Source: Mucilaginibacter geliditolerans
GTDB lineage: Bacteria > Bacteroidota > Bacteroidia > Sphingobacteriales > Sphingobacteriaceae
Length of the DNA stretch: 64,000 nt
NCBI RefSeq assembly: GCF_014200495.1
Contig: NZ_JACHBY010000005.1
Span: 248,001-312,000, forward strand
Direction: 5' to 3'
Under the pieces are notes generated by a model, which had not been told where the DNA came from, ran no database searches, and worked only from the letters and a program-made list of their open reading frames with translations. Within the stretch, counting starts at the first letter, position 1. Every line of letters begins with the position of its first letter. The position numbers and the translations under genes were made by a program. Shown here piece by piece: positions 661 to 63,110 of this stretch.

Positions 661-763
661 TCCCGGTAATTCAATTGGGCAGATATGAAATCATCTTTTT
701 ATTTCCCATCTGAGCGTGATGACTTTATCCTGGTCAACACGCTTAATCATTAACCGATAAAAC

Positions 764-3418: not shown

Positions 3419-3421
3419 AAG

Positions 3422-5119
3422 TTATAAATTTAGTACGATCTGATTTTGAGTTGGCTTAAGCCTGAATTGAACATGGTTACCAGGTGTGGAGAATGTGCCC
3501 CTGGTGGCATTAACGGAATAAGCCATGCCTTCAAATCGGGCGTTCAGGTGGTTGCCGGTGGCAGAAGTAAATGGCAATGTAATTTGAGCATTACTGGTCA
3601 GGTCTAAAAACCAGTCGAGATGTTTATTGCCAGCTACTGATATTTGGATTTGTTTTTCCGTGAATTCAATTTTCAAGGTACCGTTGTCACCCTTTAATGC
3701 CCAGCTTATCAATAGTTTTCCTGCTGTACCGTCGGTTATTATCGGGTCACCGCCTTCTAATATTGTCTCTTTTCCGTTAACAATAGCCTTGAATCTAAGG
3801 CCGGCCGGCTCATCTGGTGTGCTCCATAAATAACCATCAACAACGGGCAGCGTAAAAAATGAGCATTCATTAGAAGTAGCCACCTGGGTTTCATACTTTG
3901 AACGGAACTTTTCATTAAACAGGTGAATATCCCGGAATCGTAAATTTTCATTTTCCCATAACAGGTTAGCACGGTAATAGCGGCTATCAAACCAAACGGT
4001 TTTGTCATTACTTCCCGGCAGGTCGTTATTAATAGTAACTGAAGTAGGAGGGGTAACTTTAAAATGTTCCTTGAACCACCTGCCGGATGCCTCCAGTGTT
4101 TCTACCCTAACCTTTTTTTCATCCCGTAGTTTTTCAATCAGCGGAAATTGCAGGGTTAATCCTTTTTCCATTGCATCCCAGGTGAAAGAATTTTCCTGCC
4201 CGGCTTGCGTATAGGCGAAGTTGGTTGATGCTCCATTTACAAATTCTTTAAAGAACCAGGCAACCCATGTTGAGTCGCCGCCCGCATGGGGATAAACAGG
4301 TTCTAAAGTGATGACGCCCTGCCTTTGCTTGCCTGGCGCATCGCCATATTGTCGGATCGGATCACTGCCAAGCATCCTGAAAATTGGTACAGGGATTTGG
4401 TTGACTGCATTTTGGGCAGGCATATACGAATTTATCTTGCTCGGGTAATAGGCCTGGTTCCAGTAACCACCCCAAAGGGTATAGCCGTCTGTACCGTATT
4501 GATCTTTGCAATTGCAGGATGCTACGATATGGTATTTCTGATACATATAGTTTAAACTGTATGCATCAATAAACCATGAACCCACGGATTTCGGATAATA
4601 GCCGAATATTTTTTTGAAATCCTTCATATAAACATCTATCAGTTTTATCCGCTCCTGTTGCGTATAACCTGTAGAAAAACCGATGTTAGCCCGCCAGTCC
4701 CATGGATATCTTCCGCGCCACTTTAGTCCGGCATTTTCCACTAGGGGTTGGGGTATTTCCCACCAGGCCCCAATCTCGAAAGAGCCTTTGGGCAAGCCGG
4801 CCAAAAGTGTTTGGTACCTTTTATCCATGAGTGCATCGTATTGCAAAAGAAAAGTGCCGCCCAGGTGATATTTCTTCATTAAAGCAACCTGCTTTACTAC
4901 TGTTTGATATAAAACGTCTTCGGTAATCTTAGGATCTCTGGGTTCGAGCAGGCGGATAAAGTTGACGATATTGACTATTTTGGGTTTGCCGGCTGTTGAA
5001 TTAGCGCCCGGATCTTTGCTGCCGAAAGCAGTGCCGGTAATCAATACTCCAATGAAAATAAGGCTGTTGGAAAGGCATATGCGCAAAATTTTGCTTTTGT
5101 TATTTTTATTTGAAATCAT
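3422..5119 (-). CDS. secreted protein of unknown function, possible (beta/alpha)-barrel deacetylase/glycosidase-like
   Basis: I do not recognise this 565-aa protein securely. An N-terminal hydrophobic segment (about 13-32, ending TGTAFGS) suggests export. Residues about 45-330 alternate predicted strands and helices, with phrases such as IVNIVNFIRLLEPRD, FEIGAWWEIPQPL and YPKSVGSWFIDAYSL. These recall NodB-like or GH57/GH38-like glycoside hydrolase/deacetylase barrels. Residues about 400-565 look like a beta-sandwich. It is translationally adjacent to GH78 (3 bp gap), so it probably acts on the same rhamnose-containing substrate, as an enzyme or accessory protein. No catalytic residue can be assigned with confidence. 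Confidence 0.6.
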   Translation of the reverse strand: MISNKNNKSKILRICLSNSLIFIGVLITGTAFGSKDPGANSTAGKPKIVNIVNFIRLLEPRDPKITEDVLYQTVVKQVALMKKYHLGGTFLLQYDALMDKRYQTLLAGLPKGSFEIGAWWEIPQPLVENAGLKWRGRYPWDWRANIGFSTGYTQQERIKLIDVYMKDFKKIFGYYPKSVGSWFIDAYSLNYMYQKYHIVASCNCKDQYGTDGYTLWGGYWNQAYYPSKINSYMPAQNAVNQIPVPIFRMLGSDPIRQYGDAPGKQRQGVITLEPVYPHAGGDSTWVAWFFKEFVNGASTNFAYTQAGQENSFTWDAMEKGLTLQFPLIEKLRDEKKVRVETLEASGRWFKEHFKVTPPTSVTINNDLPGSNDKTVWFDSRYYRANLLWENENLRFRDIHLFNEKFRSKYETQVATSNECSFFTLPVVDGYLWSTPDEPAGLRFKAIVNGKETILEGGDPIITDGTAGKLLISWALKGDNGTLKIEFTEKQIQISVAGNKHLDWFLDLTSNAQITLPFTSATGNHLNARFEGMAYSVNATRGTFSTPGNHVQFRLKPTQNQIVLNL

Positions 5120-7272: not shown

Positions 7273-7298
7273 AAAGCCCCACAGATCTGCGGGGCTTT
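7273..7298 (-). terminator. Rho-independent terminator for the GH2 gene
   Basis: The inverted repeat AAAGCCCC/GGGGCTTT (8-bp stem, 10-nt loop containing AGATCT) is followed on the minus strand by GCTTTT. It sits 47 bp past the GH2 stop and could also work from the other side. Confidence 0.65.
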
Positions 7299-7344
7299 AA
7301 TTTGTCTTTAGTGCGTTTAGGGTGGTCCGCTGGTTTATGCTTGT

Positions 7345-9870
7345 TTATTGTTGTACCAATTGCAGCGTTGCGCCTTTAAGGTTTTTTGATGTAGCGGTAA
7401 TGGTCAGTATGCCTGCCTTGGTGTCCGCACGCACCAAAATAGTCGCTATACCGCCTCTTACCTTTGCCGTAGCCGGGCTAATGATCCTACCATTGCCAGT
7501 TATGGTAAAATGCACAACGGTTGTATTATCAAGGCAGCTGATGGTACCCTTGTTATCGGTTACACGTGCATGCACAAAAACGGCATCAGCACCGTCGGCT
7601 TTTAGCGGTATGCCTTCGGTTTCCTCCACCAGTTTAAGCCCGGTTGCTACACCCGGTGAGTTGATGGTTTGTTGAGTTGCTATTTTGCCTTTGATATAAC
7701 CAATCACCTTTAGCTCACCAGCCTGCCAGTTGATGTTATTAAAGGTATAGGGTGGATGAAGAAGGTTATTGCCGTTACCGCCATCAAACGCGTTACCGCC
7801 GTGGTCGTAGTCGCCATAGTCTGTATCAGAGCCTGCATCAGGGTGCTGTTTTTTGATGAACTTGCCATTTATATATAAAGCCACCTCGTCGCAATTAGAA
7901 TATACGATAACTTTCTCGGGCTTATCGGTTGGTGTCCACCAATTGGCTATGTAAACCATCGGCTTGTTATCGGCAGCAAAAATAGGTTTGGTGGCACTAA
8001 GCTGGCTCCTGAAAAAGTAATAACTAAATTTTGGAAGCCGGAATACATCTACTGATCCCCAGTTTGATGTGGTTTTATTGGTAGCTTCAAAGCCATCATA
8101 AAATGCCCATGTAGCATCACCTATTGTCCAGGGATAATATTTAGGGCCCATTAATAAGTTGTGTTCCCACTGAAAATTCCAGGCATTTTGCAGTAAGGCC
8201 TTTTCACCATTGGCACGGTTTACACGGGTGGTCGATTTGTCTCCGCCAAATTCATAGTCGCCATATTCGCGTGCAAAACCAGGCTGCTCGGGTTGTACAT
8301 TCTGTGGCCTGCCGAAGGGGTCGTCCCAGCTATTATAAGGTACATCCCATTCTGTATGTTTGGCAGCATAGGTATCACCGGAGGTAAAAAAGTTATTACC
8401 CGGATATTCCTCATGCGCAATTTTTGATGATTTTACCCTGAAGCTATCGGCAGGGTAGGTTTCATTCAGGCTTACTTCCCACATAATAACGGAGGGATGG
8501 TTCCTGTCGCGGCGGATCATTTGTCTTATATCTGAAAAAACACGCTGCGAAAAGATCTCATTGCTGTTAAAAAACTGCCAGCCGGGTATAGGATCACCAA
8601 GCATCAGGCCGATTGAATCGCAGTATTTGTATACTGAAGGATCCTGTGGATAGTGGGAGAGGCGCACAAAGTTAAAACCGGCTTCCTTTATCCGTTTCAT
8701 ATCACGGCATTGCATCGCGTCAGACATGGCATTACCCACAAAAGGGAAATCCTGGTGACGGTTAGTACCTACTATTTTTAGTGGCTTGTCATTTATTTTA
8801 AAACCACCTGCACGTGTGTATGATAATTTACGAATGCCTATTTTTTGTGTGAGGTCATCCATCAATTTATCGTCTTCCCATACCTGGGTAATGAGCGTAT
8901 AAAGGTTCGGTTCATCGGGCGACCATAAATCAGTGTTTGCGACCTTTATCGTTTGGTCAATATCGTTTATACTTCCGCCATCTATCTTAATATTGGTAGA
9001 GGTACTTAACTGTGCTTTTGTTTTGTTGTTAATGAGGATCTGCTTCACAGTAACCTGTGATAAGCCGGTTGCTGAATTCTTAACCTGTGTTTTAATAAGC
9101 ACATCAGCTTTACTGGCCGATATATTTTCGGGCCGTACAAAAACGCCACCGCCTGCAACAGTATTTGCATCGGTAGGGTCGGTTATAAATAGTTTATGTG
9201 TAATGATGAGCCATGCATCACGGTAAATGCCGCTCCAATATAAAAAGCCCATGCGGGCCAATGGCTTGCCGGGTGGCAGGTTGATGTTATCGCGATTATC
9301 CAGCCTTACAATGATCTCGTTAGTACCTGTATTAATATTGCCATCAAGCGGAACAATAAAGGGTAGATATCCGCCCGCGTGCTGTGTTATAAATTTCCCA
9401 TTGATCCAAACAGAGGCGGTGTGCATGGCGCCTTCAAAACGGATATAAAGGTGTTTATCCTTATAGTCAGCAGGAACCTGGAATTGTTTGCGGTAATAGC
9501 AAATGCCGGTAAACTGGTTTACGTTGGGGTTGAGTTCTTCTTCATACCTGGCCGGGTGGGGTATAGAGATTTTTTCCCATTTTAACGATCGGATAGCAGG
9601 GTATTCTATTGAAAACCCGTTCAATGCCTCCTGCACTTCACGGTTACGAATAGTATCTGCCGGCCACGATCTCTTTTTAATGTTTTCCTGGTTAAACTGG
9701 GATTTAAAGGAAGTGCTATTCCTGATATTGACGGCATTCTTCAATTGGCGGGCCGAATCTATCCGATACATTTCCCAGTCGTAATTAAATTTAATAACCT
9801 GCCGGGCTGTTTGTGCATAAGCTACATGAAAAATTGCCAGGTATAGTATGGTTATAAAGAGTTTTTTCAT
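7345..9870 (-). CDS. GH2 family beta-galactosidase-like glycoside hydrolase, secreted
   Basis: I chose the start at 9870 (MKKLFITILYLAIFHVAYAQ, a clear signal peptide) over an in-frame ATG 26 codons upstream that would bury it; the product is 841 aa. Domain order is GH2 sugar-binding jelly roll (about 60-230, with WINGKFITQHAGGYLPF), Ig-like domain (about 240-350), TIM barrel (about 360-640) and C-terminal Ig-like domains. The acid/base is E470 in WEVSLNE and the probable nucleophile E535 in FAREYGDYEFGG. It follows SusC-SusD on the same strand but a strong terminator hairpin lies between. It would cleave beta-linked galactose (or a related sugar) from imported oligosaccharides in the periplasm. 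Confidence 0.88.
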   Translation of the reverse strand: MKKLFITILYLAIFHVAYAQTARQVIKFNYDWEMYRIDSARQLKNAVNIRNSTSFKSQFNQENIKKRSWPADTIRNREVQEALNGFSIEYPAIRSLKWEKISIPHPARYEEELNPNVNQFTGICYYRKQFQVPADYKDKHLYIRFEGAMHTASVWINGKFITQHAGGYLPFIVPLDGNINTGTNEIIVRLDNRDNINLPPGKPLARMGFLYWSGIYRDAWLIITHKLFITDPTDANTVAGGGVFVRPENISASKADVLIKTQVKNSATGLSQVTVKQILINNKTKAQLSTSTNIKIDGGSINDIDQTIKVANTDLWSPDEPNLYTLITQVWEDDKLMDDLTQKIGIRKLSYTRAGGFKINDKPLKIVGTNRHQDFPFVGNAMSDAMQCRDMKRIKEAGFNFVRLSHYPQDPSVYKYCDSIGLMLGDPIPGWQFFNSNEIFSQRVFSDIRQMIRRDRNHPSVIMWEVSLNETYPADSFRVKSSKIAHEEYPGNNFFTSGDTYAAKHTEWDVPYNSWDDPFGRPQNVQPEQPGFAREYGDYEFGGDKSTTRVNRANGEKALLQNAWNFQWEHNLLMGPKYYPWTIGDATWAFYDGFEATNKTTSNWGSVDVFRLPKFSYYFFRSQLSATKPIFAADNKPMVYIANWWTPTDKPEKVIVYSNCDEVALYINGKFIKKQHPDAGSDTDYGDYDHGGNAFDGGNGNNLLHPPYTFNNINWQAGELKVIGYIKGKIATQQTINSPGVATGLKLVEETEGIPLKADGADAVFVHARVTDNKGTISCLDNTTVVHFTITGNGRIISPATAKVRGGIATILVRADTKAGILTITATSKNLKGATLQLVQQ

Positions 9871-9912
9871 AATGTACTTTAAAGCTATGCAGTAAATAGG
9901 AGGGGCTATAAT

Positions 9913-9953
9913 AAAAAATGATTTTGATGCACCGGGCATCAAAATCATTTTTT
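9913..9953 (-). terminator. strong terminator/attenuator between susD and the GH2 gene
   Basis: A perfect 18-bp stem (9913-9930 with 9936-9953, core TGATTTTGATGC) has a 5-nt ACCGG loop and A/T-rich ends giving a U-run on either strand. It starts 17 bp after the SusD stop and ends about 43 bp before the GH2 start, so it should reduce GH2 transcription relative to SusCD. Confidence 0.75.
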
Positions 9954-9969
9954 TATTTAATGGGCAGAA

Positions 9970-11616
9970 TTAATAGCCCGGGTTTTGTTTTATGTTTTTG
10001 TCGAGGTCAATTTCTGATTGTGGTATAGGCCACAGGTAATTCTTAGCAGCAAATGTCCTGGTTTCCAACTTTAACGGTGCACCGGTTATGGTGTACTTAC
10101 CTGTTGTGGCATCAACTGTACCTGTTTTGGCGCCATAAACGATTCCGGTCATTACCTGGCTTGCTGTTTGCCAGCGTTGCAAATCAAACCAGCGTAAGCC
10201 TTCAAAAGCAAATTCAACCCTGCGCTCGTTACGTACCAAGGTGCGTAATGATGCCTGGGTACTATACACGCTTTGATCAACAGACGGCATACCAGCCCTG
10301 TTACGAACAAGGTTAATATCTGCATAAACACTTCCGTCAATTTGGTTCGATTCTATTTTAGCTTCAGCGTCAGTTAATAATACTTCCGCATAGCGTATAA
10401 CGGTCATATTCAGGCCGCTTTGAAACAGGTTATCAAAGTCGCTTAAGTTTGATGTGAACTTTTTAACTATATAACCACTTGGCGATGTGTTGTTGCCGCT
10501 CGCATAGTAATCAGCCGATGAAGCATCCAGCGGATCAAAATAAGAAACCGTTTTTGCTAATTGGCCAACTACGCCGCTTGCCTGGTAAAAGGGTGCGCCG
10601 GGATATAAAATGGTTGCAGCCAGGCGCGGGTCGCGGTTTGCATATGGGTTTGTTGGGTCATAGCCTGATGCCGGGTCGGTTATCGGTTTGCCATTGTCCA
10701 TCTCATAGGAGTCAACAAGCGATTGCACCGGATCAATTGATGACCATCCGCCCATTGAGTTTGATGGCATAACGCCCAATACACCATTTGCGTTAGCAGA
10801 TGGATTCTCCACATATTGTACCGAGGCAATTATTTCAGGATTGTTAGCCTGCGCTACCATACGGAAAAGATCAGTATAACTTGGGTATAATGCATAACCT
10901 AATTTCATTACTGCCTGGCAGTCGGTGATACAATCTTTATAATCAGCACTATATAGCTCAACTCTCGCTTTTAATGCAAGCGCGGCTCCCCTGGTAATAT
11001 GGCCATCGCCTGAATTATTAGCTGCAGTAAGATCAGGAGCTGCTGCTGCAAGTTCACTTAATATAAATTTGGTTACATCAGCTTTTGGCGTTCTTGTTAG
11101 TGCAAGTGATTGTTCGGGGGTAAGTGAAGTTGTTACCAAAGGCACATCACCATACAGCTGGCTCATTAAAAAATATTGGTAGGCACGTATAAAACGCACC
11201 TGTGCAATCATATTTGCTTTGTCTGTTGCAGACATAGGGGTTTTATCAATGTTAGCCAAAAAGAAGTTACACCTGGTTATACCGGTGTAAATATAGGCAG
11301 ATGCATCACCGGTTGATGGATTGACAGTACCGTTACCATATGCCTGGAAACCTTCCCAGGGATATTGACTATAAGCATTGTCTGATGCGCAATCAAGATA
11401 AGCGATCCAAAGGCCATCGGCCCAACCGTTTCCATTACCATAAGTAACAGATGTACCATTATAAACGCCCGCTAAAGCCGCGGCGGCATCACTTTCAGAG
11501 GTCCACAAACTGGAGTTGGTATAGGCATCCTGTGGCTGCCTGTCAAGGAAATCCTTTTTGCAGGACGTAAATAACAGTGATATAGCTAATATATTTAAAA
11601 CAAGGTTCTTTTTCAT
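9970..11616 (-). CDS. SusD/RagB family outer-membrane nutrient-binding lipoprotein
   Basis: The 548-aa protein starts with a lipoprotein signal (LLFTSC then KKDFLDRQPQ, typical of SusD). It has the SusD helical repeat features (VRFIRAYQYFLMSQLYGDVPLVT) and a C-terminal end with RNERRVEFAFEGLRWFDLQRW and LWPIPQSEIDLD. It lies 20 bp downstream of SusC, as usual. It would cap the TonB-dependent transporter at the cell surface and bind the glycan, here probably a galactose-rich one given the GH2 and GH35 neighbours. Confidence 0.95.
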   Translation of the reverse strand: MKKNLVLNILAISLLFTSCKKDFLDRQPQDAYTNSSLWTSESDAAAALAGVYNGTSVTYGNGNGWADGLWIAYLDCASDNAYSQYPWEGFQAYGNGTVNPSTGDASAYIYTGITRCNFFLANIDKTPMSATDKANMIAQVRFIRAYQYFLMSQLYGDVPLVTTSLTPEQSLALTRTPKADVTKFILSELAAAAPDLTAANNSGDGHITRGAALALKARVELYSADYKDCITDCQAVMKLGYALYPSYTDLFRMVAQANNPEIIASVQYVENPSANANGVLGVMPSNSMGGWSSIDPVQSLVDSYEMDNGKPITDPASGYDPTNPYANRDPRLAATILYPGAPFYQASGVVGQLAKTVSYFDPLDASSADYYASGNNTSPSGYIVKKFTSNLSDFDNLFQSGLNMTVIRYAEVLLTDAEAKIESNQIDGSVYADINLVRNRAGMPSVDQSVYSTQASLRTLVRNERRVEFAFEGLRWFDLQRWQTASQVMTGIVYGAKTGTVDATTGKYTITGAPLKLETRTFAAKNYLWPIPQSEIDLDKNIKQNPGY

Positions 11617-52951: not shown

Positions 52952-53030
52952 AAGCCAAAGAAAAGGGCTGCTCTTGAAATGGGGGCAATTATAAATCCGG
53001 GTGTTCGGCTAATTTTAATATGGCAATAGG

Positions 53031-53912
53031 TTAAAATGCCAAACTGATTTTCCCACTTTCGGAGCTCCCGACGTTTTTTCCCGAAACAAGGTCTTTGCAG
53101 TTAGAAAGCACTGTATTTAAAAGGTCATCAGTAGTGCCATAATGAACAACATCAATTGTGGATGTTCCTGACGATTTAAACTTTTTATTGATGCTTTTTA
53201 TACTGGATATATTACTTAATTCAGTAGAAAGAGAATTAAAGCTTGAAAAGTTTATCCCTGTAATACTGATAGCAGTTTTCATTGTTTTACCTGTATTGGC
53301 AACACCGCGGGCTGTAGAATCTGATTTGCTTTTAGCACTGTCAGCGGCGCTTAAGGGATGTAGCCGGTGGTTGATGTTTACCATAGTAACAGTTAGCATG
53401 GTATGTATATTTTTCAGGGATAGCTTTACCGCTTTTGTTGAGTTCCTAACCCTGATAAGTGCTGACGGGATCTTGAATGGATGGCCTTTAAGATCATTGG
53501 TAACATTTGCGGTCATGTCAGAGCTGGACGCTACCAGGGCTTGGCCATCAGTATTTAACGTGGTTAACTGAAGGTTGAAAGCTGTTAACTGTTTCTCGAT
53601 CCCGTTATTGTCCATATTTATTTTTTTAGTGACAATAACCTGCTGTTCAATGGCATTAAGCTGGGTTGATGCCTGGTTTGTCTGATCGTAAACATTATAA
53701 CAGTTGGTAACATAGGCATCTACTTCAGGAAGGCCCAGATCGTCACTTGGCCGGGTTAAATTATTGGGGTTATTAGTTGTTATAGCGGCTGGCGTGACGG
53801 CTGGTGTGGTAGCAGCAGTAACCGGCGGGGTATTAGTTTGCGAATAACCCTCGGTAACCAAAAGGATCAAAACCAAGGTTAAACAAATTAAGTAAAAAGC
53901 TTTTATTTTCAT
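53031..53912 (-). CDS. secreted, largely helical protein of unknown function
   Basis: The 293-aa protein has a signal peptide (LILLVTEGYSQ), a Thr/Pro/Ala-rich linker (about 25-55) and then long predicted helices (NAIEQQVIVTKKIN, IEKQLTAFNLQLTTLN, ISSIKSINKKFKSS). The linker resembles the one in the CDC-like protein encoded just upstream on the same strand (about 200 bp gap with a hairpin), so the two are likely functionally linked. It may be a partner, an immunity-type protein or an independent surface protein. No family is recognised. Confidence 0.65.
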   Translation of the reverse strand: MKIKAFYLICLTLVLILLVTEGYSQTNTPPVTAATTPAVTPAAITTNNPNNLTRPSDDLGLPEVDAYVTNCYNVYDQTNQASTQLNAIEQQVIVTKKINMDNNGIEKQLTAFNLQLTTLNTDGQALVASSSDMTANVTNDLKGHPFKIPSALIRVRNSTKAVKLSLKNIHTMLTVTMVNINHRLHPLSAADSAKSKSDSTARGVANTGKTMKTAISITGINFSSFNSLSTELSNISSIKSINKKFKSSGTSTIDVVHYGTTDDLLNTVLSNCKDLVSGKNVGSSESGKISLAF

Positions 53913-53999: not shown

Positions 54000-54032
54000 A
54001 GGTTTACGGAGCTTTTTAAGCTCCGTAAACCT
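54000..54032 (-). terminator. 15-bp perfect hairpin after the CDC-like gene
   Basis: AGGTTTACGGAGCTT pairs perfectly with 54018-54032 across a TTT loop; the minus-strand exit is TTTCTG. It lies 80 bp past the stop of the CDC-like gene and 88 bp before the next minus-strand gene. It is a terminator or an RNA-stabilising stem-loop. Confidence 0.6.
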
Positions 54033-54112: not shown

Positions 54113-55978
54113 CTATTGGTTGCCTGACGGGTTAAAACCAGCGTCAAAAAAACAACTTGAAACATTATGATTAGCAGAATTTAATTGCACTTCATTTGCA
54201 CCACTCAGGTTCCATGTCATCCCCTGGCCTTTGTTGGGGCCAAGCGCTAAAGGGTTAGAGTTGGTGCTGGTAACCTTAGGATTAATTTTTAATATGATCT
54301 GATCTATGTCCCAGATGTCAAGCCCTTGCCCATTGGCCGAATTACTAAGCGGCCCTATTACTAAAGTACCGCCGCCCGCTTTTTGAAATACTTCTTCATC
54401 AAAATGTCCTTTATAATTGGGGTTCCGCTTTAGTTGAACTGTAACAGTGCCATTGTTATTATATTTAGTATTAAGCCCTAGAGCGGCTGTGTACATAGCT
54501 TCGGTCTGGCTTGTCAGATTAGGCGTTAAACCCGGAAACACCTCGACGTAGTAATAAGTATAGGCTTCTTTCCCATCATTGCCCTGCAAAAAGGTTACTG
54601 AAGCATCTTCAAGCTGTACAGAACCGCCATCAGTAGGGGTGCAGGTTTGTTCGGCAAAATTGTCAGTGGCGTTGTAAGTATTTAACGTCTTTCCAGCCAT
54701 CGTGCAAACCGTATAACTAATGGGTAACGCATCTTTGTAATTTGTTTTACTAAAAACATCATTAACCATTTTTTGTAACTGGGCCAATGAAGTGGCAACA
54801 AATGTTCCTGAACTTGGGCCACCTACAAAATATCCGGTAATATTGGTTGCGCCGCTTTTACTGCTGCTGGCATAATTGACATCTAAGTTCGCTGACACTC
54901 CGAAACCGGAGTAGGAACCCTTAAATACATCTGCTTCCTGCTCGGAGCTAAATGTAATATCGGCATTTGCCAAAATACGCACACCATAACTAACGCTGCT
55001 TATAAAAGACAGGTCTGTGGTTGCTTCAACATTAGGGTCTTTATAAAAACCGCTATCAGGTGGTGTGGTACTTATGGTAAATAATGGTTTTATGGCCGAA
55101 ATTGTGAGGTGTACATGGTTTGACTGGTTGGCGGTGCTGTACACATTGGTCAAATCAACACCATACCCGCTAACCCCAGCCCCTATACTAATGTTATACA
55201 TAGCGCTGCTGGTAGCCAGGGATGTTACAAAGCTTGTACCTTCGTTTGCGCTGCTGTGCCCAAATCTTGATACAAGCTGGGCTACGCCGGTTCCTATTGT
55301 TCCTGAATTGGGGTTTTTAACATATACATACGTTTTCCCTTTCACATCAGTAATATTTGTACTGAGTTGTATTGTATTGCGGGCGCCGGGTTGCGGCTGC
55401 CATTTCCCTGAATTTATATTATCATAAGTATAACAGGCACCCGGAAAAATATTCCCGGCAGTATTTGAATAATCATTCACCGTAAAATCAGCTGAATTGG
55501 CATTAATTGAAATATTTGTAGTAGTACAATCATACCCTCCCCCTGAGGTTTTTTTGGGCTTACCGTGAGTTTTTTTGATTGGCCCTGCTACCATATTTGA
55601 AGGAGCGTTGGTACTTATCTTTATACTGTCCTTGGTGTTATCGGTAAATTTAAGGACTTTGACAGCTGGCTCTTTAAACGATTTTGATAAATTAGCAACA
55701 CGTTTGGCATATTGTGGCAATTTCCTATAATCCTCCATATTATGTGCCAAAGGGGCCGGAAGCTCGGCGATAGCTTTTGAAGGTACAACGGGGGAAGTTG
55801 TTTTAGGTGGCGTTGTAACAGCCGGTACTGTTGTTGTAGCAGGCTTTGCTGTGGGCTTTTTTACCTGGGCATTTGCATAAAAGGTACAAGCTAACAATGG
55901 TATTACTAAGTAATAAAACTGCAGGCGATGGCTAATATGAAAGCTATAATGTTTGGTGTTGCGGTTCATGTTTTTCAT
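54113..55978 (-). CDS. CDC-like (thiol-activated cytolysin family) pore-forming protein
   Basis: The 621-aa protein has a signal peptide (ACTFYANAQ) and a Lys/Pro/Thr linker (about 38-68). A CDC-type core follows, with GNIFPGACYTYDNI (about 175-188, cf. the YPGALxxAN segment), ISSVSYGVRILANADITFSS (about 326-345), the strand-bend glycines G386-G387 in TGYFVGGPSSGT, and ALPISYTVCTMAGKTL (about 417-432). The C-terminal region (about 450-590) is beta-rich. The Trp-rich undecapeptide of cholesterol-binding CDCs is absent. Cysteines at 151, 182, 425 and 446 could form disulphides. It is longer than typical CDCs (about 470-500 aa). The fold call rests on motif order; activity and target are unknown. 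Confidence 0.82.
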   Translation of the reverse strand: MKNMNRNTKHYSFHISHRLQFYYLVIPLLACTFYANAQVKKPTAKPATTTVPAVTTPPKTTSPVVPSKAIAELPAPLAHNMEDYRKLPQYAKRVANLSKSFKEPAVKVLKFTDNTKDSIKISTNAPSNMVAGPIKKTHGKPKKTSGGGYDCTTTNISINANSADFTVNDYSNTAGNIFPGACYTYDNINSGKWQPQPGARNTIQLSTNITDVKGKTYVYVKNPNSGTIGTGVAQLVSRFGHSSANEGTSFVTSLATSSAMYNISIGAGVSGYGVDLTNVYSTANQSNHVHLTISAIKPLFTISTTPPDSGFYKDPNVEATTDLSFISSVSYGVRILANADITFSSEQEADVFKGSYSGFGVSANLDVNYASSSKSGATNITGYFVGGPSSGTFVATSLAQLQKMVNDVFSKTNYKDALPISYTVCTMAGKTLNTYNATDNFAEQTCTPTDGGSVQLEDASVTFLQGNDGKEAYTYYYVEVFPGLTPNLTSQTEAMYTAALGLNTKYNNNGTVTVQLKRNPNYKGHFDEEVFQKAGGGTLVIGPLSNSANGQGLDIWDIDQIILKINPKVTSTNSNPLALGPNKGQGMTWNLSGANEVQLNSANHNVSSCFFDAGFNPSGNQ

Positions 55979-56087
55979 TTTTGATAAGTGCTTTTTTAGG
56001 AATTTAATAAACCATCATATAAAGCTTTATCTGTTGCAAAGACAAGCAGGATGGTGAAGGTTGTTTATTAGTTAAATTTGACTTGAT

Positions 56088-56133
56088 TAAAATTACTGCC
56101 GATAGAACAATCGGTCAATCACCAAATCGGGGG
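56088..56133 (-). promoter_or_regulatory. CCCCCG-box promoter of the CDC-like gene
   Basis: On the minus strand the box CCCCCGATTTGGTGATTGAC (56133-56114) includes a TTG at the -33 position. Exactly 20 bp later comes TAATTTTA (56095-56088) as the -7 element. The 5' untranslated region would be about 100 nt. Confidence 0.72.
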
Positions 56134-56288
56134 TTTTTAAATTCACAATATCGAATCATAAAAAAGAGACTTATCGATTGGTCTTAAATCAAATAGTGTA
56201 TATAAAATGCTAAACAAGCTATGCTTGTTGCAGGCTATATGTTCATATAATAAAATCAATTATTTCCATCTAAATGGAAAGCGCTTAT

Positions 56289-56334
56289 CCCCCGATTGGG
56301 TGATTGACACCGATTGGCTTATGTAATAGTTTTG
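56289..56334 (+). promoter_or_regulatory. CCCCCG-box promoter of the first secreted paralogue
   Basis: CCCCCGATTGGGTGATTGAC (56289-56308) has TTG at 56304-56306, then exactly 20 bp, then TAGTTTTG (56327-56334), a full TAnnTTTG -7. The ATG is 19 bp further on. Confidence 0.8.
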
Positions 56335-56353
56335 TTATATAAAATAAAAACAC

Positions 56354-57121
56354 ATGAAAAACTTTGTAGCCCTTGTCGCCAGTTTTTTAATAGCCAGCCA
56401 GTTGTTTGCCCAGGATTGTTCTGAATACATGTATATGCAAAAGAACAAGACCATTGAGATGACTGCCTTCAATAATAAAAATGAAATGACCTTTAAATCA
56501 GTTACAAAGGTTTCTGACGTAAGTACCGCAAACGGAGTAACTACTGCAAATGTGGCGGCACAGGCATATGATAAAAATGGGAAATTGATTAACTCAGCAA
56601 ACGCTGTTTATAAATGTGATGGAGGGGTAATGATGATGGACATGAGCGTTAATACTCAGCAGCAGTCTCAACAACAGGCCCAGCCAAATACCAAGGTGAA
56701 TTTTAAAATAATTAACCAGGGCTATATGGAATATCCGTCCGGTATGCAAGTTGGGGATCATTTAAAAGATGCCACCACCCAAATGGAAATGGATATGAAT
56801 AATGGTATGACAGGTGTTATGACCATTCAAATCACTGACAGGATAATTGCCGGGAAAGAAAATGTTACCACACCGGCCGGAAGTTGGGATTGCTTTAAAA
56901 TAACCTATAAAACTACATCTTCAACAACCTTTAAAGGTGCTCATGCCGACACTATCAACAATGCGATGAGCGCCTTTGCCAAGCTCAAAGCCAAATTGGG
57001 GAACTTAGGGCCAAAAATGCCTTCAAATACTTCTGAAACTACCGTATGGTATGCTCCGGGTTTTGGCATGGTGAAAATGCAGAGCAAAACCTTTGTAATG
57101 GAACTTACGGCACTCAGGTAA
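56354..57121 (+). CDS. secreted DUF3108-like protein, paralogue A
   Basis: The 255-aa protein has a signal peptide (LIASQLFAQ) and a beta-rich mature part. It has the conserved phrases YMEYPSGMQVGDHLKD, KENVTTPAGSWDCFKI and TVWYAPGFGMVKMQ, a layout I associate with DUF3108/TapB-like Bacteroidota proteins. A Gln-rich insert (about 100-112) is absent from its paralogue. Function is unknown. It shares promoter architecture with its neighbour and with the CDC-like gene, so it belongs to the same regulon. Confidence 0.75.
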   Translation: MKNFVALVASFLIASQLFAQDCSEYMYMQKNKTIEMTAFNNKNEMTFKSVTKVSDVSTANGVTTANVAAQAYDKNGKLINSANAVYKCDGGVMMMDMSVNTQQQSQQQAQPNTKVNFKIINQGYMEYPSGMQVGDHLKDATTQMEMDMNNGMTGVMTIQITDRIIAGKENVTTPAGSWDCFKITYKTTSSTTFKGAHADTINNAMSAFAKLKAKLGNLGPKMPSNTSETTVWYAPGFGMVKMQSKTFVMELTALR

Positions 57122-57197
57122 ATTTATTGTTTATGAATTAGTTATGCCGCTAATAATATCGGTAATGTTTTAGTTTGGTGTGCAGCAAAAATGATAT

Positions 57198-57243
57198 CCC
57201 CCGTTTGCGGTATTGACGGCTGTTGCAGCTTGTAATAGCTTTG
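57198..57243 (+). promoter_or_regulatory. CCCCCG-box promoter of the second secreted paralogue
   Basis: CCCCCGTTTGCGGTATTGAC (57198-57217) has TTG at 57213-57215, then 20 bp, then TAGCTTTG (57236-57243). The ATG follows 18 bp later, and GTTATATAAA is shared with the promoter of paralogue A. Confidence 0.8.
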
Positions 57244-57261
57244 TTATATAAACAAAAATCC

Positions 57262-57918
57262 ATGAAAAAATTTACATTCATCATCGCCTTGCTTTTAATA
57301 ACCTCAAAACTGCTGGCACAGGATTGTTCCCAGTATATGTATATGAAAAAAAACAAGGTTATTGAATCAACCTGTTATAATGAGAAAGGCGAAGTTTTGC
57401 GGAAAGTAATTTCAACAGTTGTTAATGTAATCACAACAAACGGGACAACCACTGCAAACGTTAGTACGAAATATTTTGATAAAAACGGAAAGCCCAACGG
57501 GGAAAAAAGTATTTCCTACAAATGTAATGGTGGTTCATTTATAATGGACATGGGTGATAATAGCCCCCAGCAGGGCAATGCTAATATTAAATTCACCGCC
57601 AGTTCCATGGAATATCCGTCAGGGATGAAGGTTGGCGACCGTTTAAAGAGTGTTACCTCACAAGTGGAAGAGAAAATTGGTGGTGTCTCAAGCATTGCTA
57701 CTTCTCAAATTGAAAGGACGGTTGTTGCTAAAGAAAACGTCACCACACCCGCCGGAACCTGGAGTTGTTTTAAAATAGTTAATAAAAATACCACTACTAT
57801 TAAAGGTTATAAAATGGCTCCGTTCACCGCTGAAACTACGGAGTGGTATGTCCCCAATTTTGGTATAGTAAAGGTTCAGGTTATTGGTTTAACAACGGAA
57901 ATTACCGCTCTCAGGTAA
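57262..57918 (+). CDS. secreted DUF3108-like protein, paralogue B
   Basis: The start at 57262 (MKKFTFIIALLLITSKLLAQ) gives 218 aa with a clear signal peptide; an upstream in-frame ATG at 57223 lies before the -7 element, so it is excluded. It aligns along its length with paralogue A (DCSQYMYMKKNKVIES, MEYPSGMKVGDRLKS, KENVTTPAGTWSCFKI, TTEWYVPNFGIVKVQV) but lacks the Gln-rich insert. Gene and promoter were duplicated together. It is convergent with the response regulator, 24 bp away. Confidence 0.75.
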   Translation: MKKFTFIIALLLITSKLLAQDCSQYMYMKKNKVIESTCYNEKGEVLRKVISTVVNVITTNGTTTANVSTKYFDKNGKPNGEKSISYKCNGGSFIMDMGDNSPQQGNANIKFTASSMEYPSGMKVGDRLKSVTSQVEEKIGGVSSIATSQIERTVVAKENVTTPAGTWSCFKIVNKNTTTIKGYKMAPFTAETTEWYVPNFGIVKVQVIGLTTEITALR

Positions 57919-57942
57919 GGTGAGGCTATAGTGGAATCAGCT

Positions 57943-58578
57943 TTAAACCACCCTGTTTTTTAAAGCTTTTGCAACGGCTTCTGATTGGTTATGCACATGA
58001 AGCTTCTCATAAATATTACGGATATGGCTTTTTACAGTTTCAAAACTGATATTGAGTGATCCTGCTATCATTTTGTAACTAAATCCCTTTACCAGGCCGT
58101 TCAGTATTTCTTTTTCCCGTACCGTCAGATCATATTTTTCAATCGTGCCTGAACTGGTTTGAGCTAAGTGCTCTAACAACATACGTGCAATATTAGCGCT
58201 TAATGGCGCTCCGCCTTCTAATGATTCCGCAATAGCGCCGAATAATTTCTCAAAGCAGTGTTTTTTGAGTAAATATCCCGAGGCACCGGCGCAAATAGCC
58301 GCAATTACATTTTTATTATCGTCAAAAACAGTAAGCATAATTATCTTCACTTCTTTATCAACCTGCCGGATCAGTTGAACTGCTTCAGTACCATTTCTCC
58401 CGGGCATATCAATATCCATCAAAATAACCTGCGGCTTTAAAGTTTGAAGATCGTTTATGACATTTGTACAATTTTGGAAGGCCCCGGCACAGGTATAATT
58501 ATCAGATGTGTTAAGGAGTTGCACAAGCGCTTCGCATAAGTCCGTATTGTCCTCGTATATCAAAACGCCTGTTTTCAT
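57943..58578 (-). CDS. NarL/LuxR-type response regulator
   Basis: The 211-aa protein has a receiver domain with phosphoacceptor D55 in ILMDIDMPGRNG, the switch region MLTVFDDNKN and K105-type Lys in GYLLKKH. A LuxR-type HTH follows (about 145-205, LTVREKEILNGLVKGFSYKMIAGSLNISFETVKSHIRNIY). It is encoded 114 bp downstream of a matching HisKA_3 kinase on the same strand. Its own upstream region has the same CCCCCG box as the CDC-like and paralogue promoters, so autoregulation and direct control of those genes are likely. Confidence 0.93.
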   Translation of the reverse strand: MKTGVLIYEDNTDLCEALVQLLNTSDNYTCAGAFQNCTNVINDLQTLKPQVILMDIDMPGRNGTEAVQLIRQVDKEVKIIMLTVFDDNKNVIAAICAGASGYLLKKHCFEKLFGAIAESLEGGAPLSANIARMLLEHLAQTSSGTIEKYDLTVREKEILNGLVKGFSYKMIAGSLNISFETVKSHIRNIYEKLHVHNQSEAVAKALKNRVV

Positions 58579-58662
58579 TAAATTTCTTTTTAGTATTTCG
58601 CCTTTTAATGAGGGCTGCTATCCAAACAATAATTAGGATAATCATGGGCGACCATAATAAGT

Positions 58663-58708
58663 TAAATGTAAACAGATTATTATTATTTACAGCTACCGAA
58701 ATCGGGGG
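58663..58708 (-). promoter_or_regulatory. CCCCCG-box promoter of the response regulator
   Basis: On the minus strand CCCCCGATTTCGGTA (58708-58694) matches the paralogue B box at 13 of 15 positions. Counting from the same box position, exactly 20 bp separate the -33 site (here GCT, not TTG) from TACATTTA (58670-58663). The box lies inside the last codons of the kinase gene. Confidence 0.6.
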
Positions 58709-61700
58709 ATATGGAAACTTAAAGACACCAGCGTTCCTTTGTTTTCGTCACTTTCAATATAAAGATCGGCTCCCATTTTTTTTGCCCGCTGCCCCATGTT
58801 ATAAAGCCCATTACCCGACGAAACAGCATTTATATTAAACCCTTTGCCATTATCGCTGATGGTTAATTTGCAAACGCTCTTATGTCTTGTTAAACAAATT
58901 TGTATGAAGGTGCATCCGGAGTATTTTGAAGCATTACAAATAGCTTCTTTAAAAATAAGATACAACTCTTTCCTTGAGGCCATTCCTATTTTTAGATGTT
59001 CTATTTCCAGGTCAATACTGAAATCGTAAGGAATACACTGGGCCTCGAGCACTTCAGAGAGGTATTCACGGGCTTTCATTAAAAAATTATCCAGACCATC
59101 GTTCCTGGTATTGATGGACCAGACAATATCTGATAAAGCATCCAGGGTTCTTTCCGATTTGTCGCTTATTTTTTGTAATAATTCACTACTGCTGCGCTTA
59201 TCTGTACTTATTTTTTGTAATGCTATTTTACTGAATATGTTGATGCTGCTTAACGTTGAACCAATATCATCATGCAGATCACGGGCTATATTATCACGTA
59301 ATTGCAAACGCATTTTAAACTGGTTCATGTTATACCTGTAAATGATATATATTATACTTAAAACTAATACACAAAGTGATAAATAAAACCACCATCGATG
59401 CCAGAACGGAGGGTTTACAATTAATACAAGCTTAGTAGGTGTATTATTCCATATACCTTCGTTATTACATGCTTTTACATTAAATACATAGGTGCCTTCA
59501 TCCAGATTAGCGTAAGAAACATAGCGGCGAGAACCGGCAATATTCCAACTTTTATCAAGCCCGTCCATTTTATAAGCATATTTATTAAGCCTTGACTGCG
59601 TATAATTAAGTGCTACATACTCAAAAGAAAAATAGTTTTGGTTGTAGTTAAGCCTAATGGTTTCCCCTTTGTGTATAGTGTAATCCTTATCAAAAATACG
59701 TAAGTCTGTTATTGATACTTCGGGCGGATGCGTATTTTTCACAAAGTTAGCCGGGTTAAAGCTATAAATACAGCCCTTGGATGCTATTGATATATTGCTG
59801 TTATCGTCAATAACTATTGAAGTTAGCCCGTCCGGACTTTGAATGCCATCTTTTTTATTAAATTGAGTTATTTTTCTATCAGGTATATGAAATTTAACTG
59901 CTCCTGCATTGGTCAACAGCCAAAGGTTGTTTTGTTTATCGCCAACTATAGTTGAAACAGACATCGACGGCAGGCCATCATTAACAGTTATAATCTGTGG
60001 GTTTTTAAATTGTGTATTGGTTGCCCACAAGCCATAATAATCGGTACCTATCCATAAATCTTTATCTTTTTTATATAATTCATTAATAGTAAGGTCTGAA
60101 ACAAGTTTGTTTATATTATTCCATGTGATTTTTTCAAAACGTCCCGTATTGGTATGTAATAAAATTAATCCTGTGTGCATGCCGCCTATTAACAGGCTGT
60201 CCTTTGATAATTCACAAAATGCACGTATCTCATTTATTTTAGACTCCGGCCCCATTGTATTATAATGATAAGAAATGAACTTTCTTGCTTCCGGGTCAAA
60301 CCTGAAAATGCCGTTGCTATGTGTTCCTATCCATATCCTGTTTTCATTATCAATGTATAAAATATAGATGCTGCTTTTAATATCAGGCGATTTAAATATC
60401 TCGGCTTGAAGGGGGTGATTTCTGTTATTAACATTTTCAGAAACCTTAACCAGCATATTTTTTACACTTAACCATGTTGCCCCACTTTTGTCCTTGAGGA
60501 TATTAAATACGGCAAAATTGGCTGGCAGCCCTAAAATTTTACTGTAATCTTGTATAAAGCCTTTTTTTTGATCGTACATGAACAACCCTTCATACATACC
60601 CATCCACCACAAACCATCTTTTTCTTTAAGCATGGTTAATGGTGCAAAATGCGTGTATATAAGGCCTGTATCCGTTTTTAACTGGTATATTGTTTTTGAT
60701 AAATGAACATAGTGCGGATCATATTTAACTATCCCATTTTCTGTACCGATCCAAAAGGTACCCGACTTATCGCGAAATAAGGATATTACCGCACCGGATA
60801 TTCTACTTTCACCTGCCCACTCAACCGGGTAATTGATAAACTTGTTTTTTGAAGGGCAAAAAATGGTAAGCCCGCCTTCCTTATTGGCGAGCCATATATT
60901 CCCATTTTCATCCTGAAGCAGGTCGGATATTATTTTATAAGGTAAGAAATGAAGATCATCTGTTTTATAAAACCAGGTTTTAATCTTCTCTGTTTTTGTA
61001 TTAAACCGTAAAAGGCCGGCATCCCAGGTGCCTATCCAAAGATTACCCTGGTTATCCAGTAACGATTTGCTAAAGCTCAGTGGGGCGTTTTTATCCCCCT
61101 GCGGAAACGTTGGCAGGTCGGGACGATAATACTTACAAACTCCGGTTAATTTGGAATAACAATAGAATCCATTCCTTGTTGTTACATATAAATGGCCATT
61201 ATGATCATCAGTTAATGAGTTAATAAACGTACTTTTTTCAAAGCCGGGGACTTTTGTCCAGAGGTAGTTGTTTTTGTTGAATTGAAATAAACCTGAAGCC
61301 GTTCCTACCCAAAAAATGGAATCATTTTTCTTTAGTATCGTATTTACCTTTAATCCGTAACAGTTAAAATTTTTTATATTTTGGGTATTGATATCAATCC
61401 TGCTCAGCCCTCCGTCTGATCCGATCCATAAATTATTTTTTTCGGGATAAAGGCATTGGATCGAATTGCCCATTAAGGTGGTTGAATCTCCGGGAAAATT
61501 CCTAAATGCTTTAAAGATGTAGCCATCATACCTAAAAAGCCCCTCCTTTGTCCCAAACCAAAGGAACCCATTACTATCCTGATTTATGCTTAATATACAA
61601 TCGTTGGTAAGCCCTTCTTCCTGTACCTTTTCTATATGCAGGTTACTAATGTCTTGTGCATTTAGCTGATTGGGTATAATAAACAGAAAAAAGGTGATAA

Positions 61701-61767
61701 TAATATAATGTAAAAACCAGGCTGTCTTATGATTTAATAAGGAATATCTTATTTCGCCCGTTTTCAT
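58693..61767 (-). CDS. propeller-type sensor histidine kinase (HisKA_3)
   Basis: The 1024-aa protein has an N-terminal hydrophobic signal (about 14-36, ending NQLNAQ), two-component propeller repeats (about 45-700, e.g. GFLWFGTKEGLFRYDG), a Y_Y_Y domain (about 710-785) and a membrane segment (about 792-812). The HisKA_3 dimerisation domain has H832 in RDLHDDIGSTLSS, and an HATPase follows (about 910-1024, SDNGKGFNI and GLYNMGQRAKKMGADL). Unlike the hybrid sensor at 34903 it has no receiver or HTH and signals to the separate NarL-type regulator downstream. The ligand is unknown. Confidence 0.93.
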   Translation of the reverse strand: MKTGEIRYSLLNHKTAWFLHYIIITFFLFIIPNQLNAQDISNLHIEKVQEEGLTNDCILSINQDSNGFLWFGTKEGLFRYDGYIFKAFRNFPGDSTTLMGNSIQCLYPEKNNLWIGSDGGLSRIDINTQNIKNFNCYGLKVNTILKKNDSIFWVGTASGLFQFNKNNYLWTKVPGFEKSTFINSLTDDHNGHLYVTTRNGFYCYSKLTGVCKYYRPDLPTFPQGDKNAPLSFSKSLLDNQGNLWIGTWDAGLLRFNTKTEKIKTWFYKTDDLHFLPYKIISDLLQDENGNIWLANKEGGLTIFCPSKNKFINYPVEWAGESRISGAVISLFRDKSGTFWIGTENGIVKYDPHYVHLSKTIYQLKTDTGLIYTHFAPLTMLKEKDGLWWMGMYEGLFMYDQKKGFIQDYSKILGLPANFAVFNILKDKSGATWLSVKNMLVKVSENVNNRNHPLQAEIFKSPDIKSSIYILYIDNENRIWIGTHSNGIFRFDPEARKFISYHYNTMGPESKINEIRAFCELSKDSLLIGGMHTGLILLHTNTGRFEKITWNNINKLVSDLTINELYKKDKDLWIGTDYYGLWATNTQFKNPQIITVNDGLPSMSVSTIVGDKQNNLWLLTNAGAVKFHIPDRKITQFNKKDGIQSPDGLTSIVIDDNSNISIASKGCIYSFNPANFVKNTHPPEVSITDLRIFDKDYTIHKGETIRLNYNQNYFSFEYVALNYTQSRLNKYAYKMDGLDKSWNIAGSRRYVSYANLDEGTYVFNVKACNNEGIWNNTPTKLVLIVNPPFWHRWWFYLSLCVLVLSIIYIIYRYNMNQFKMRLQLRDNIARDLHDDIGSTLSSINIFSKIALQKISTDKRSSSELLQKISDKSERTLDALSDIVWSINTRNDGLDNFLMKAREYLSEVLEAQCIPYDFSIDLEIEHLKIGMASRKELYLIFKEAICNASKYSGCTFIQICLTRHKSVCKLTISDNGKGFNINAVSSGNGLYNMGQRAKKMGADLYIESDENKGTLVSLSFHIPRFR

Positions 61768-61932
61768 TTGTGGAGTTTATTGAAATACAGCATTGCGAAT
61801 ATAACTATAATGGCTTATTAATGTGCAGTTTAATTCTATACTGATAAATCCGCACTAATCGTATTGGTATGGAATTTTTTGTAGTTTTTGGTAACTGTAG
61901 GGAAATGTGTTCGAACCGTTTTTTAACAGATT

Positions 61933-62525: not shown

Positions 62526-63110
62526 ATGCAAACAGTTGATTACAGCAAATTAACCGATCAGGAATTAGCTGCCCTCCTAAACGAGGGAGACCATGTTGCT
62601 TATGCTCAAATTTATACCCGTTATAAATACATCCTTTATGCACATGCTGTAAACAAAACGCGGGATCGTGAAGAAGCTATGGACATCATTCAGGAAGTTT
62701 TCACTTATTTATGGTTCAAGCATAAGGTAATTCATTTTTCCGGAAATTTATCTGGCTACCTTTATGGGGCGGTACGTCACGCCATCTTAAATAAAATAAC
62801 CCGTAAACAGGTTCAGGAAAAATATTTCGCCTCCCTGAAAACATTTTCAGAACAGGACAATGTGGTGACAGACCAGCGTATCATAGAAAACCAGTTCAGG
62901 GAGTATATTGAAAAGGAAATCGCAATGTTGCCCCCTAAAATGAGAGAGGTATTTGAGTTGAGCAGAAAAGAATACCTAAGCCATAAAGAAATTGCTTGCA
63001 GGCTGGAGATAGCTGAGCAAACAGTCAGTAAACAAATCACTAATGCTTTAAGAATCCTTAGGGTTAAACTGGGTGTTTTACTATACCTTTTTTTGATGGT
63101 ACATCATTAA
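62526..63110 (+). CDS. ECF-type RNA polymerase sigma factor
   Basis: The 194-aa protein has sigma region 2 (about 20-90, YAQIYTRYKYILYAHAVNKT and AMDIIQEVFTYLWFK) and region 4 (about 125-180, LPPKMREVFELSRKEYLSHKEIACRLEIAEQTVSKQI). It belongs to the Bacteroidota group that is paired with FecR-like anti-sigma factors and SusC transporters carrying an STN domain. A FecR gene follows 87 bp downstream. It is probably held by that anti-sigma factor and released by an outer-membrane signal; the palindromes upstream suggest additional repression. Confidence 0.93.
   Translation: MQTVDYSKLTDQELAALLNEGDHVAYAQIYTRYKYILYAHAVNKTRDREEAMDIIQEVFTYLWFKHKVIHFSGNLSGYLYGAVRHAILNKITRKQVQEKYFASLKTFSEQDNVVTDQRIIENQFREYIEKEIAMLPPKMREVFELSRKEYLSHKEIACRLEIAEQTVSKQITNALRILRVKLGVLLYLFLMVHH

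What the first reader, a model, noticed from the sequence alone, without database searches (positions are those of the whole stretch)
56088..58708. Four promoters of a CDC-like/two-component block share one box at fixed spacing
Seen: CCCCCG(A/T)TT boxes precede the CDC-like gene (56133-56114, minus), both secreted paralogues (56289 and 57198, plus) and the response regulator (58708, minus). In each, exactly 20 bp separate the -33 position of the box from a TAnnTTTG/A -7 element, so every promoter spans 46 bp. I found no other copy in the window by eye. Inference: the NarL-type regulator encoded in the block binds this box, controls itself and drives a CDC-like secreted system. I know of no description of such a regulon.
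Basis: partly seen in the sequence, partly recalled or inferred. Interest (0 to 1): 0.85.

Follow-up and report, generated by a model that had tools for sequence, protein, structure and literature searches.

The report
Shared promoter tag in regulator block
In a soil-type bacterium, four neighbouring gene switches carry the same short DNA tag, most likely the landing site of a regulator encoded next to them, which would control itself, two secreted proteins and a pore-forming protein.

Summary
CCCCCG(A/T)TT-N29-TAnnTTT occurs four times in the window; in the whole 6.5-Mb genome, at 28-30 bp spacing, the same four matches are the only ones. Six loci found in the genus carry the kinase-regulator pair beside a DUF3108-like gene. 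There, 18 of 19 promoters keep the box (15 exactly, 3 with one or two mismatches); four DUF3108-like homologues without the pair nearby lack it. The regulator's box lies inside the last kinase codons. Pro-Arg-Phe there is spelled alike in 6 of 6 genes, whereas 73 of 379 unchanged residues keep their codon across four of them. With at most one mismatch the 20-bp D1/CDC-type element occurs 7 times in 149 genomes, always in these blocks.

Best reading: a small local regulon, autoregulated by a NarL-type regulator acting at sigma-A promoters from about -43. Binding was not shown. The cytolysin-like gene is present in 4 of 6 loci, so it looks like one output, not the core. Its coding body appears exchanged between otherwise near-identical blocks behind an unchanged promoter and leader. 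New member of a known kind.

The parts
54113..55978 (-). CDC-like (CDCL) pore-forming protein gene, 621 aa, N-terminal signal region, domains 1-3 recognisable, C-terminal region without the CDC undecapeptide
   Evidence: PF01289 E 2.1e-11; PDB sequence hits to a hemolysin (3hvn, suilysin) and pneumolysin; low-confidence model (pLDDT 49.9) still matches perfringolysin O, E 5.5e-14, and solved CDCLs
56088..56133 (-). Promoter of the CDC-like gene: box CCCCCGATT 56133-56125, extended element to 56114, -7 TAATTTTA 56095-56088; predicted start 56083
   Evidence: box kept in G072 and G097, with two mismatches in G148
56289..56334 (+). Promoter of DUF3108-like gene 1: box 56289-56297, TTGAC 56304-56308, -7 TAGTTTTG 56327-56334; predicted start 56339
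   Evidence: kept in 4 of 5 other linked loci, with one mismatch in G097 and G098
56354..57121 (+). DUF3108-like secreted protein 1 (D1), 255 aa
   Evidence: PF21347 E 1.8e-28; PDB relatives 3fzx, 4fvs
57198..57243 (+). Promoter of DUF3108-like gene 2: box CCCCCGTTT, TTGAC, -7 TAGCTTTG; predicted start 57248
   Evidence: kept in G072 and G097
57262..57918 (+). DUF3108-like secreted protein 2 (D2), 218 aa, paralogue of D1
   Evidence: PF21347 E 1.2e-27; 52% identical to D1
57943..58578 (-). NarL-type response regulator, receiver + GerE/LuxR helix-turn-helix
   Evidence: PF00072 and PF00196; best NCBIfam match NarL, below its cut-off
58663..58708 (-). Promoter of the response regulator: box CCCCCGATT 58708-58700 inside the last kinase codons, -7 TACATTTA 58670-58663; no -33 TTG; predicted start 58658
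   Evidence: box and -7 the same in 6 of 6 loci
58693..61767 (-). Sensor kinase, two-component-regulator propeller + Y_Y_Y + HisKA_3 + HATPase

Best explanation
The four boxes are operator sites of the NarL-type response regulator encoded at 57943-58578. Seen directly: the box sits at a fixed place (-50 to -42, with the extended element reaching -31) upstream of four sigma-A-type -7 elements. Inferred: a periplasmic or extracellular signal sensed by the propeller/Y_Y_Y kinase (58693-61767) leads to phosphorylation of the regulator. It then binds as a dimer centred near -43, next to the -33 region, and recruits RNA polymerase in class-II fashion. It thereby raises its own synthesis from a promoter buried in the 3' end of the kinase gene, and that of two DUF3108-like secreted proteins and one CDC-like pore-former.
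For: Own genome: 4 of 4 pattern matches in the block. The <=1-mismatch 20-bp element: 7 of 7 in the blocks among 149 genomes. Of 19 promoters in six linked loci 18 score 12-15 of 15 (box + -7 in frame; lowest, at 12, the G148 CDC-like site and the G098 and G015 regulator sites); the four unlinked D1 promoters score 9, 10, 11 and 10 (Fisher on D1 promoters, 5 of 6 against 0 of 4, p 0.024). In diverged pairs box + extension + -7 keep 23-27 of 28 bases, while D1 and CDC-side flanks and spacer keep 20-29 of 72-73. Codon-level constraint on the box inside the kinase gene: Pro-Arg-Phe codons identical in 6 of 6, against 73 of 379 invariant residues across four genes, and 2 of 94 invariant three-residue runs. 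One natural variant (G097, D1) is a 26-bp inverted repeat, 11 of 13 positions, reached by 1 of 5000 shuffles, as expected for a dimeric regulator.
Against: No binding or expression data. Symmetry is unremarkable at the other 10 of 11 sites tested and at 8 of 8 in a shorter test. The regulator's own site lacks the GGTGATTGAC part and the -33 TTG; D2 differs from the 20-bp element at 3 places. Spacing varies by 1 bp in relatives. G015 D1 has no recognisable box (score 10), and the unlinked G114 D1 scores 11, so the gap between the groups is narrow on that score. D1 and D2 promoters are probably duplicates, so the four sites may be only three independent ones. With 3 mismatches allowed, the unlinked genome G149 has 8 matches to the 20-bp element (control 2) and the own genome one outside the block.
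Confidence: 0.75

Rival explanations
1. The box is read by a different regulator or by an alternative sigma factor, encoded elsewhere, and the local kinase-regulator pair controls other genes.
For: No binding data. An ECF sigma gene lies nearby at 62526-63110.
Against: The box goes with the pair: present in loci with it, not found upstream of D1 genes without it nearby. The regulator promoter itself keeps the box in 6 of 6. The -7 elements fit the sigma-A TAnnTTTG (PMC9723704 and PMC7366714, passages seen).
Confidence: 0.15
2. The regulator is a repressor at these boxes: binding next to and over the -33 region blocks polymerase, and the signal relieves it.
For: The extended element overlaps the -33 TTG in three of four promoters, a position where repressors also act.
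Against: Placement at about -43 and the missing -33 TTG in the regulator promoter, which would then need an activator, favour activation. NarL-type regulators are more often activators (recalled).
Confidence: 0.2
3. The similarity is only shared ancestry: duplicated promoters plus coding constraint on the kinase C-terminus, without a regulator.
For: D1 and D2 are paralogues (52% identical) with similar promoters. The regulator box codes for Pro-Arg-Phe.
Against: Box and -7 are kept while spacer and flanks have diverged. Synonymous codons of the box are unchanged, and so is the -7 element after the stop codon. By eye the CDC and regulator promoters share little else with D1/D2.
Confidence: 0.05

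Closest known systems
NarL/FixJ-type two-component systems with local, autoregulated targets
   Same: Receiver + GerE regulator next to its HisKA_3 kinase, repeated box upstream of neighbouring genes including its own.
   Different: I know of no described counterpart of this box (recalled, no motif library was searched). The autoregulatory promoter is embedded in the kinase reading frame. Binding untested.
Bacteroidota CDCL toxins (Elizabethkingia EaCDCL, Bacteroides fragilis BfCDCL)
   Same: PF01289, solved CDCL structures among the fold matches, glycine pair kept, no CDC undecapeptide (read by eye).
   Different: Single gene with no short partner found: one PF01289 match in the genome. YGV in place of the YGR motif (motif from PMC7527733, passages seen). 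A two-component system is adjacent.
Bacteroidota sigma-A promoter (TAnnTTTG at -7, TTTG or TTG at -33)
   Same: All four -7 elements fit TAnnTTT(G/A), three have TTG at -35 to -33.
   Different: An extra GC-rich box directly upstream; with the -7 element at this spacing it is found in the own genome only in this block.

Membership tests
NarL/FixJ two-component response regulator | Receiver domain plus GerE/LuxR helix-turn-helix | tested here: met
   PF00072 E 2.9e-24, PF00196 E 5.4e-18
NarL/FixJ two-component response regulator | Cognate kinase encoded next to it | tested here: met
   HisKA_3 + HATPase kinase directly upstream, same strand; in the five related loci with the regulator the kinase is beside it too
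Autoregulated local regulon | Same box at a conserved position upstream of regulator and targets, not spread over the genome | tested here: met
   sites with 3 or more mismatches cannot be excluded
Autoregulated local regulon | Regulator binds the box and changes transcription | not testable with these tools
   needs binding assay and expression data
CDC-like (CDCL) pore-forming proteins | CDC domains 1-3 | tested here: met
   PF01289 over cut-off; Foldseek to perfringolysin O and CDCLs, on a low-confidence model
CDC-like (CDCL) pore-forming proteins | F/Y-F/Y-Xn-YGR motif and Gly pair | tested here: inconclusive
   Gly pair G386-G387 the same in 5 of 5, YGR replaced by YGV or YGI in 5 of 5
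CDC-like (CDCL) pore-forming proteins | Long/short pair of the two-component Bacteroidota toxins | tested here: not met
   only one PF01289 match in the genome; a partner without that domain is not excluded
Classical cholesterol-dependent cytolysin | Undecapeptide in domain 4 | tested here: not met
   absent from the translation, read by eye

The most novel reading that the evidence does not exclude
A kinase-regulator-DUF3108-like control module serves as a fixed docking platform for exchangeable CDC-like pore-formers: promoter, box and secretion leader stay, while the pore-former body is swapped between close relatives. The co-regulated DUF3108-like proteins would be partners of the pore-former (protection of the producer or assembly), which would tie release of an antibacterial pore to sensing of a neighbour or its debris.
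Probability: 0.25. Interest if true: 0.65.

Novelty: new member of a known kind. Interest (0 to 1): 0.45.

Why it matters
The published work on Bacteroidota CDC-like toxins that I saw (passages) treats structure, proteolytic activation and immunity; those passages say nothing on how the genes are switched on. This block offers a small, testable operator set and a candidate sensor. It also shows an operator preserved through synonymous codons inside a kinase gene, and a pore-former body apparently exchanged behind a constant promoter, which makes regulation and diversification of such proteins directly testable in an environmental bacterium.

Tried and rejected
A short palindrome in every box: rejected, 12-16 bp symmetry is reached by 24-97% of shuffles in 8 of 8 sites. 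A 26-bp symmetry stands out only in G097 D1 (1 of 5000); the other 10 of 11 sites are reached by 585-4089 of 5000 shuffles.

The 8 unnamed loci and L184 are under 4 kb long, so neighbours further off were not seen.

A general regulator-CDCL link: of 23 class genomes with PF01289 (395 searched) I read wider stretches of 21: the window's own, G183 and 19 others (20 stretches); G317 and G401 were not widened, nor every further PF01289 match of the 21. By tblastn with the window's proteins only G183 shows a kinase-regulator pair directly upstream of the CDC-like gene (regulator 37%, CDC-like 31-33% identical), without a CCCCCG(A/T)TT box in the stretch. Partial regulator or kinase matches in L168, L172, L175 and L179 were not followed up.

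First Markov simulation (4 hits in 6 Mb) exceeded the analytic value; a larger run (1 in 60 Mb) did not confirm the excess.

The model of the CDC-like protein is poor (mean pLDDT 49.9) and is used only as support. The second structure job was not used.

The first codon comparison failed because the script took a wrong record as window; the corrected run is. One search started the G148 CDC-like gene one codon early (6271 instead of 6268).
Full report
WHAT IS THERE. The window lies in a Bacteroidota genome of 6.5 Mb. The block, left to right: a CDC-like gene (54113-55978, minus), two DUF3108-like secreted proteins D1 and D2 (56354-57121 and 57262-57918, plus), a NarL-type response regulator (57943-58578, minus) and its sensor kinase with propeller and Y_Y_Y domains (58693-61767, minus).

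THE BOX. CCCCCGWTT-N29-TAnnTTT matches exactly at 56133(-), 56289(+), 57198(+) and 58708(-). In the whole genome, allowing 28-30 bp between, there are the same four matches and no other; the reversed control pattern has one. For spacer 29 the analytic expectation is 0.0035 per 64 kb and 0.36 per genome; simulations gave 4 hits in 6 Mb and 1 in 60 Mb. If 2 mismatches are allowed, the number in the window (4) is reached by 13 of 100 shuffles, so the weight rests on exactness, clustering and conservation. Over 149 genomes of the genus, counted by hand from the list, the pattern has 80 matches, 15 of them in six blocks, against about 101 for the reversed control: outside the blocks it is at background.

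ANATOMY. Two promoters (D1, CDC-like) share the element CCCCCGATTkGGTGATTGAC exactly; D2 has CCCCCGTTTGCGGTATTGAC. The TTG of these three lies 20 bp before the -7 element, the usual place of the -33 element. With the -7 element at -12 to -5 (PMC9723704, passages seen; -7 and -33 consensus also in PMC7366714, passages seen) the box covers -50 to -42. Predicted starts are 56083, 56339, 57248 and 58658, giving leaders of 105, 15, 14 and 80 bases. The regulator promoter has box and -7 but no -33 TTG.

CONSERVATION. Nine other genomes of the genus have a D1 homologue at 44% identity or more (149 genomes searched), and I fetched all nine loci. Five (G072, G097, G098, G148, G015) carry the kinase and regulator next to it, four (G093, G149, G114, G163) do not within the 18-19 kb fetched (these genomes were not searched whole for the pair). 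With the window that makes six linked loci and 19 promoters: D1 6, D2 3, CDC-like 4, regulator 6. The 9-bp box is exact in 15, has one mismatch in G097 D1 and G098 D1 and two in G148 CDC-like, and is missing at G015 D1. On the score (box plus -7 at fixed spacing, maximum 15) the 18 have 12-15, G015 D1 10, and the four unlinked D1 promoters 9, 10, 11 and 10; G114 with 11 has CCCCC but nothing of the extension. Fisher on D1 promoters, 5 of 6 against 0 of 4: p = 0.024; loci are few and related. G015 also keeps a box facing away from D1 with no CDC-like gene found behind it, and its regulator gene is interrupted. In diverged comparisons (window against G098, G148, G015) box + extension + -7 keep 23-27 of 28 bases; upstream flank, spacer and downstream flank keep 20-29 of 72-73 for the D1 and CDC-side sites (for the regulator sites the upstream flank is coding).

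HOW THE LOCI WERE FOUND. The six loci were found through D1, so 'D1 goes with the pair' is partly built in. A separate scan of a second collection with the regulator alignment returned 16 loci; the four at 78-96% identity are G097, G098, G148 and G015 again, the next is at 51%. Of those four, four have D1 and two have the CDC-like gene. That scan used only two peptide patterns and may leave out the nearest genomes.

THE BOX INSIDE THE KINASE GENE. The regulator's box is written in the codons Pro-Arg-Phe near the end of the kinase gene (Pro-Arg-Phe-Arg-stop). Pro CCC, Arg CGA and Phe TTT are the same in 6 of 6 genes, the last Arg codon in 5 of 6. Among 379 invariant residues with a choice of codon, 73 keep one codon in the window, G098, G148 and G015 (66 in all six), and of 94 invariant three-residue runs only two keep all three codons, this one and one other. 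CGA is the rarest arginine codon in these genes, 18 of 219, six of these being this very codon. The -7 element TACATTTA after the stop codon is the same in 6 of 6, while most of the intergenic stretch is not. So the DNA, not only the protein, appears to be under constraint.

SPECIFICITY. The 20-bp element CCCCCGWTTnGGTGATTGAC with at most one mismatch occurs 7 times in 149 genomes, all in blocks: window 2, G072 2, G097 1, G098 1, G015 1. With exactly two mismatches there are 17 more, three in blocks (G097 twice, overlapping, and G148) and 14 elsewhere, one per genome, against 13 control matches. With three mismatches allowed in ten genomes, scattered matches appear: in the own genome one outside the block (4 in all, control 4), and in the unlinked G149 8 (control 2); these were not followed up. 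The element does not cover the regulator site, and D2 only at 3 mismatches. There is no sign of a wide regulon of strong sites; weak distant sites cannot be excluded.

MECHANISM. Most likely the adjacent regulator binds the box as a dimer and activates. The G097 D1 site is a 26-bp inverted repeat (11 of 13), reached by 1 of 5000 shuffles; the other ten sites tested show no significant symmetry. Steps shown: position, spacing, confinement, conservation. Steps inferred: binding, phosphorylation, activation, signal.

OUTPUT GENES. The CDC-like protein matches PF01289. Its model is poor (mean pLDDT 49.9) but matches perfringolysin O (E 5.5e-14) and solved CDCLs. It is the only PF01289 match in the genome. 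Such proteins in Bacteroidota kill other bacteria as long/short pairs (PMC11169675, abstract start and passages seen); here no short partner was found. D1 and D2 belong to PF21347; D1 matches two solved proteins named only as putative exported protein and putative lipoprotein (3fzx, 4fvs). Their function is unknown to me.

EXCHANGED PORE-FORMER BODY. Window and G072 are 95.7% identical in DNA from 55821 to 61848 and 88.9% from 52999 to 53883, but the CDC-like body between has no blastn match at E 1e-5. The proteins' first 50 residues are 76% identical, the segments after that 27-38%. G072 and G097 share one type (96% over window residues 151-450), the window is nearer to G148 (56% there). This points to replacement of the coding body behind a constant promoter and leader. 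What covaries with it is unknown.

LIMITS. No expression or binding data. The protein database was off. G015, G097 and G098 are 70-71% complete. Literature: search listings, and passages of five papers. No listed paper was recognisably about control of CDC-like genes by a two-component system, but the library holds open-licence papers only, and of the 248 loose matches only 20 were listed.

Noticed in passing
window 54113-55820: The body of the CDC-like gene differs from that of G072 although the DNA from 55821 to 61848 is 95.7% identical: an apparent exchange of the coding body behind a constant promoter and leader.
   Followed up: partly
L159 (G183) 7286-11486: In another family of the class a different kinase, a 37% identical regulator and a CDC-like gene (31-33%) stand in a row on one strand, without this box.
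   Followed up: partly
L096 (G015) 8376-10075: A decaying block: the regulator gene is interrupted, no CDC-like gene is found in the stretch, yet an outward-facing box remains.
   Followed up: no
window 54000-54032: Inverted repeat with 15-bp arms just after the CDC-like gene, a likely terminator separating it from the 293-aa gene 53031-53912 that follows on the same strand (by eye).
   Followed up: no
L091 (G097) 8458-8483: The D1 box of G097 is a near-perfect 26-bp inverted repeat, so it also matches the element on the other strand.
   Followed up: partly
G149, whole genome: With 3 mismatches allowed the 20-bp element has 8 matches against 2 for the control, although this genome's D1 locus lacks the pair.
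   Followed up: no
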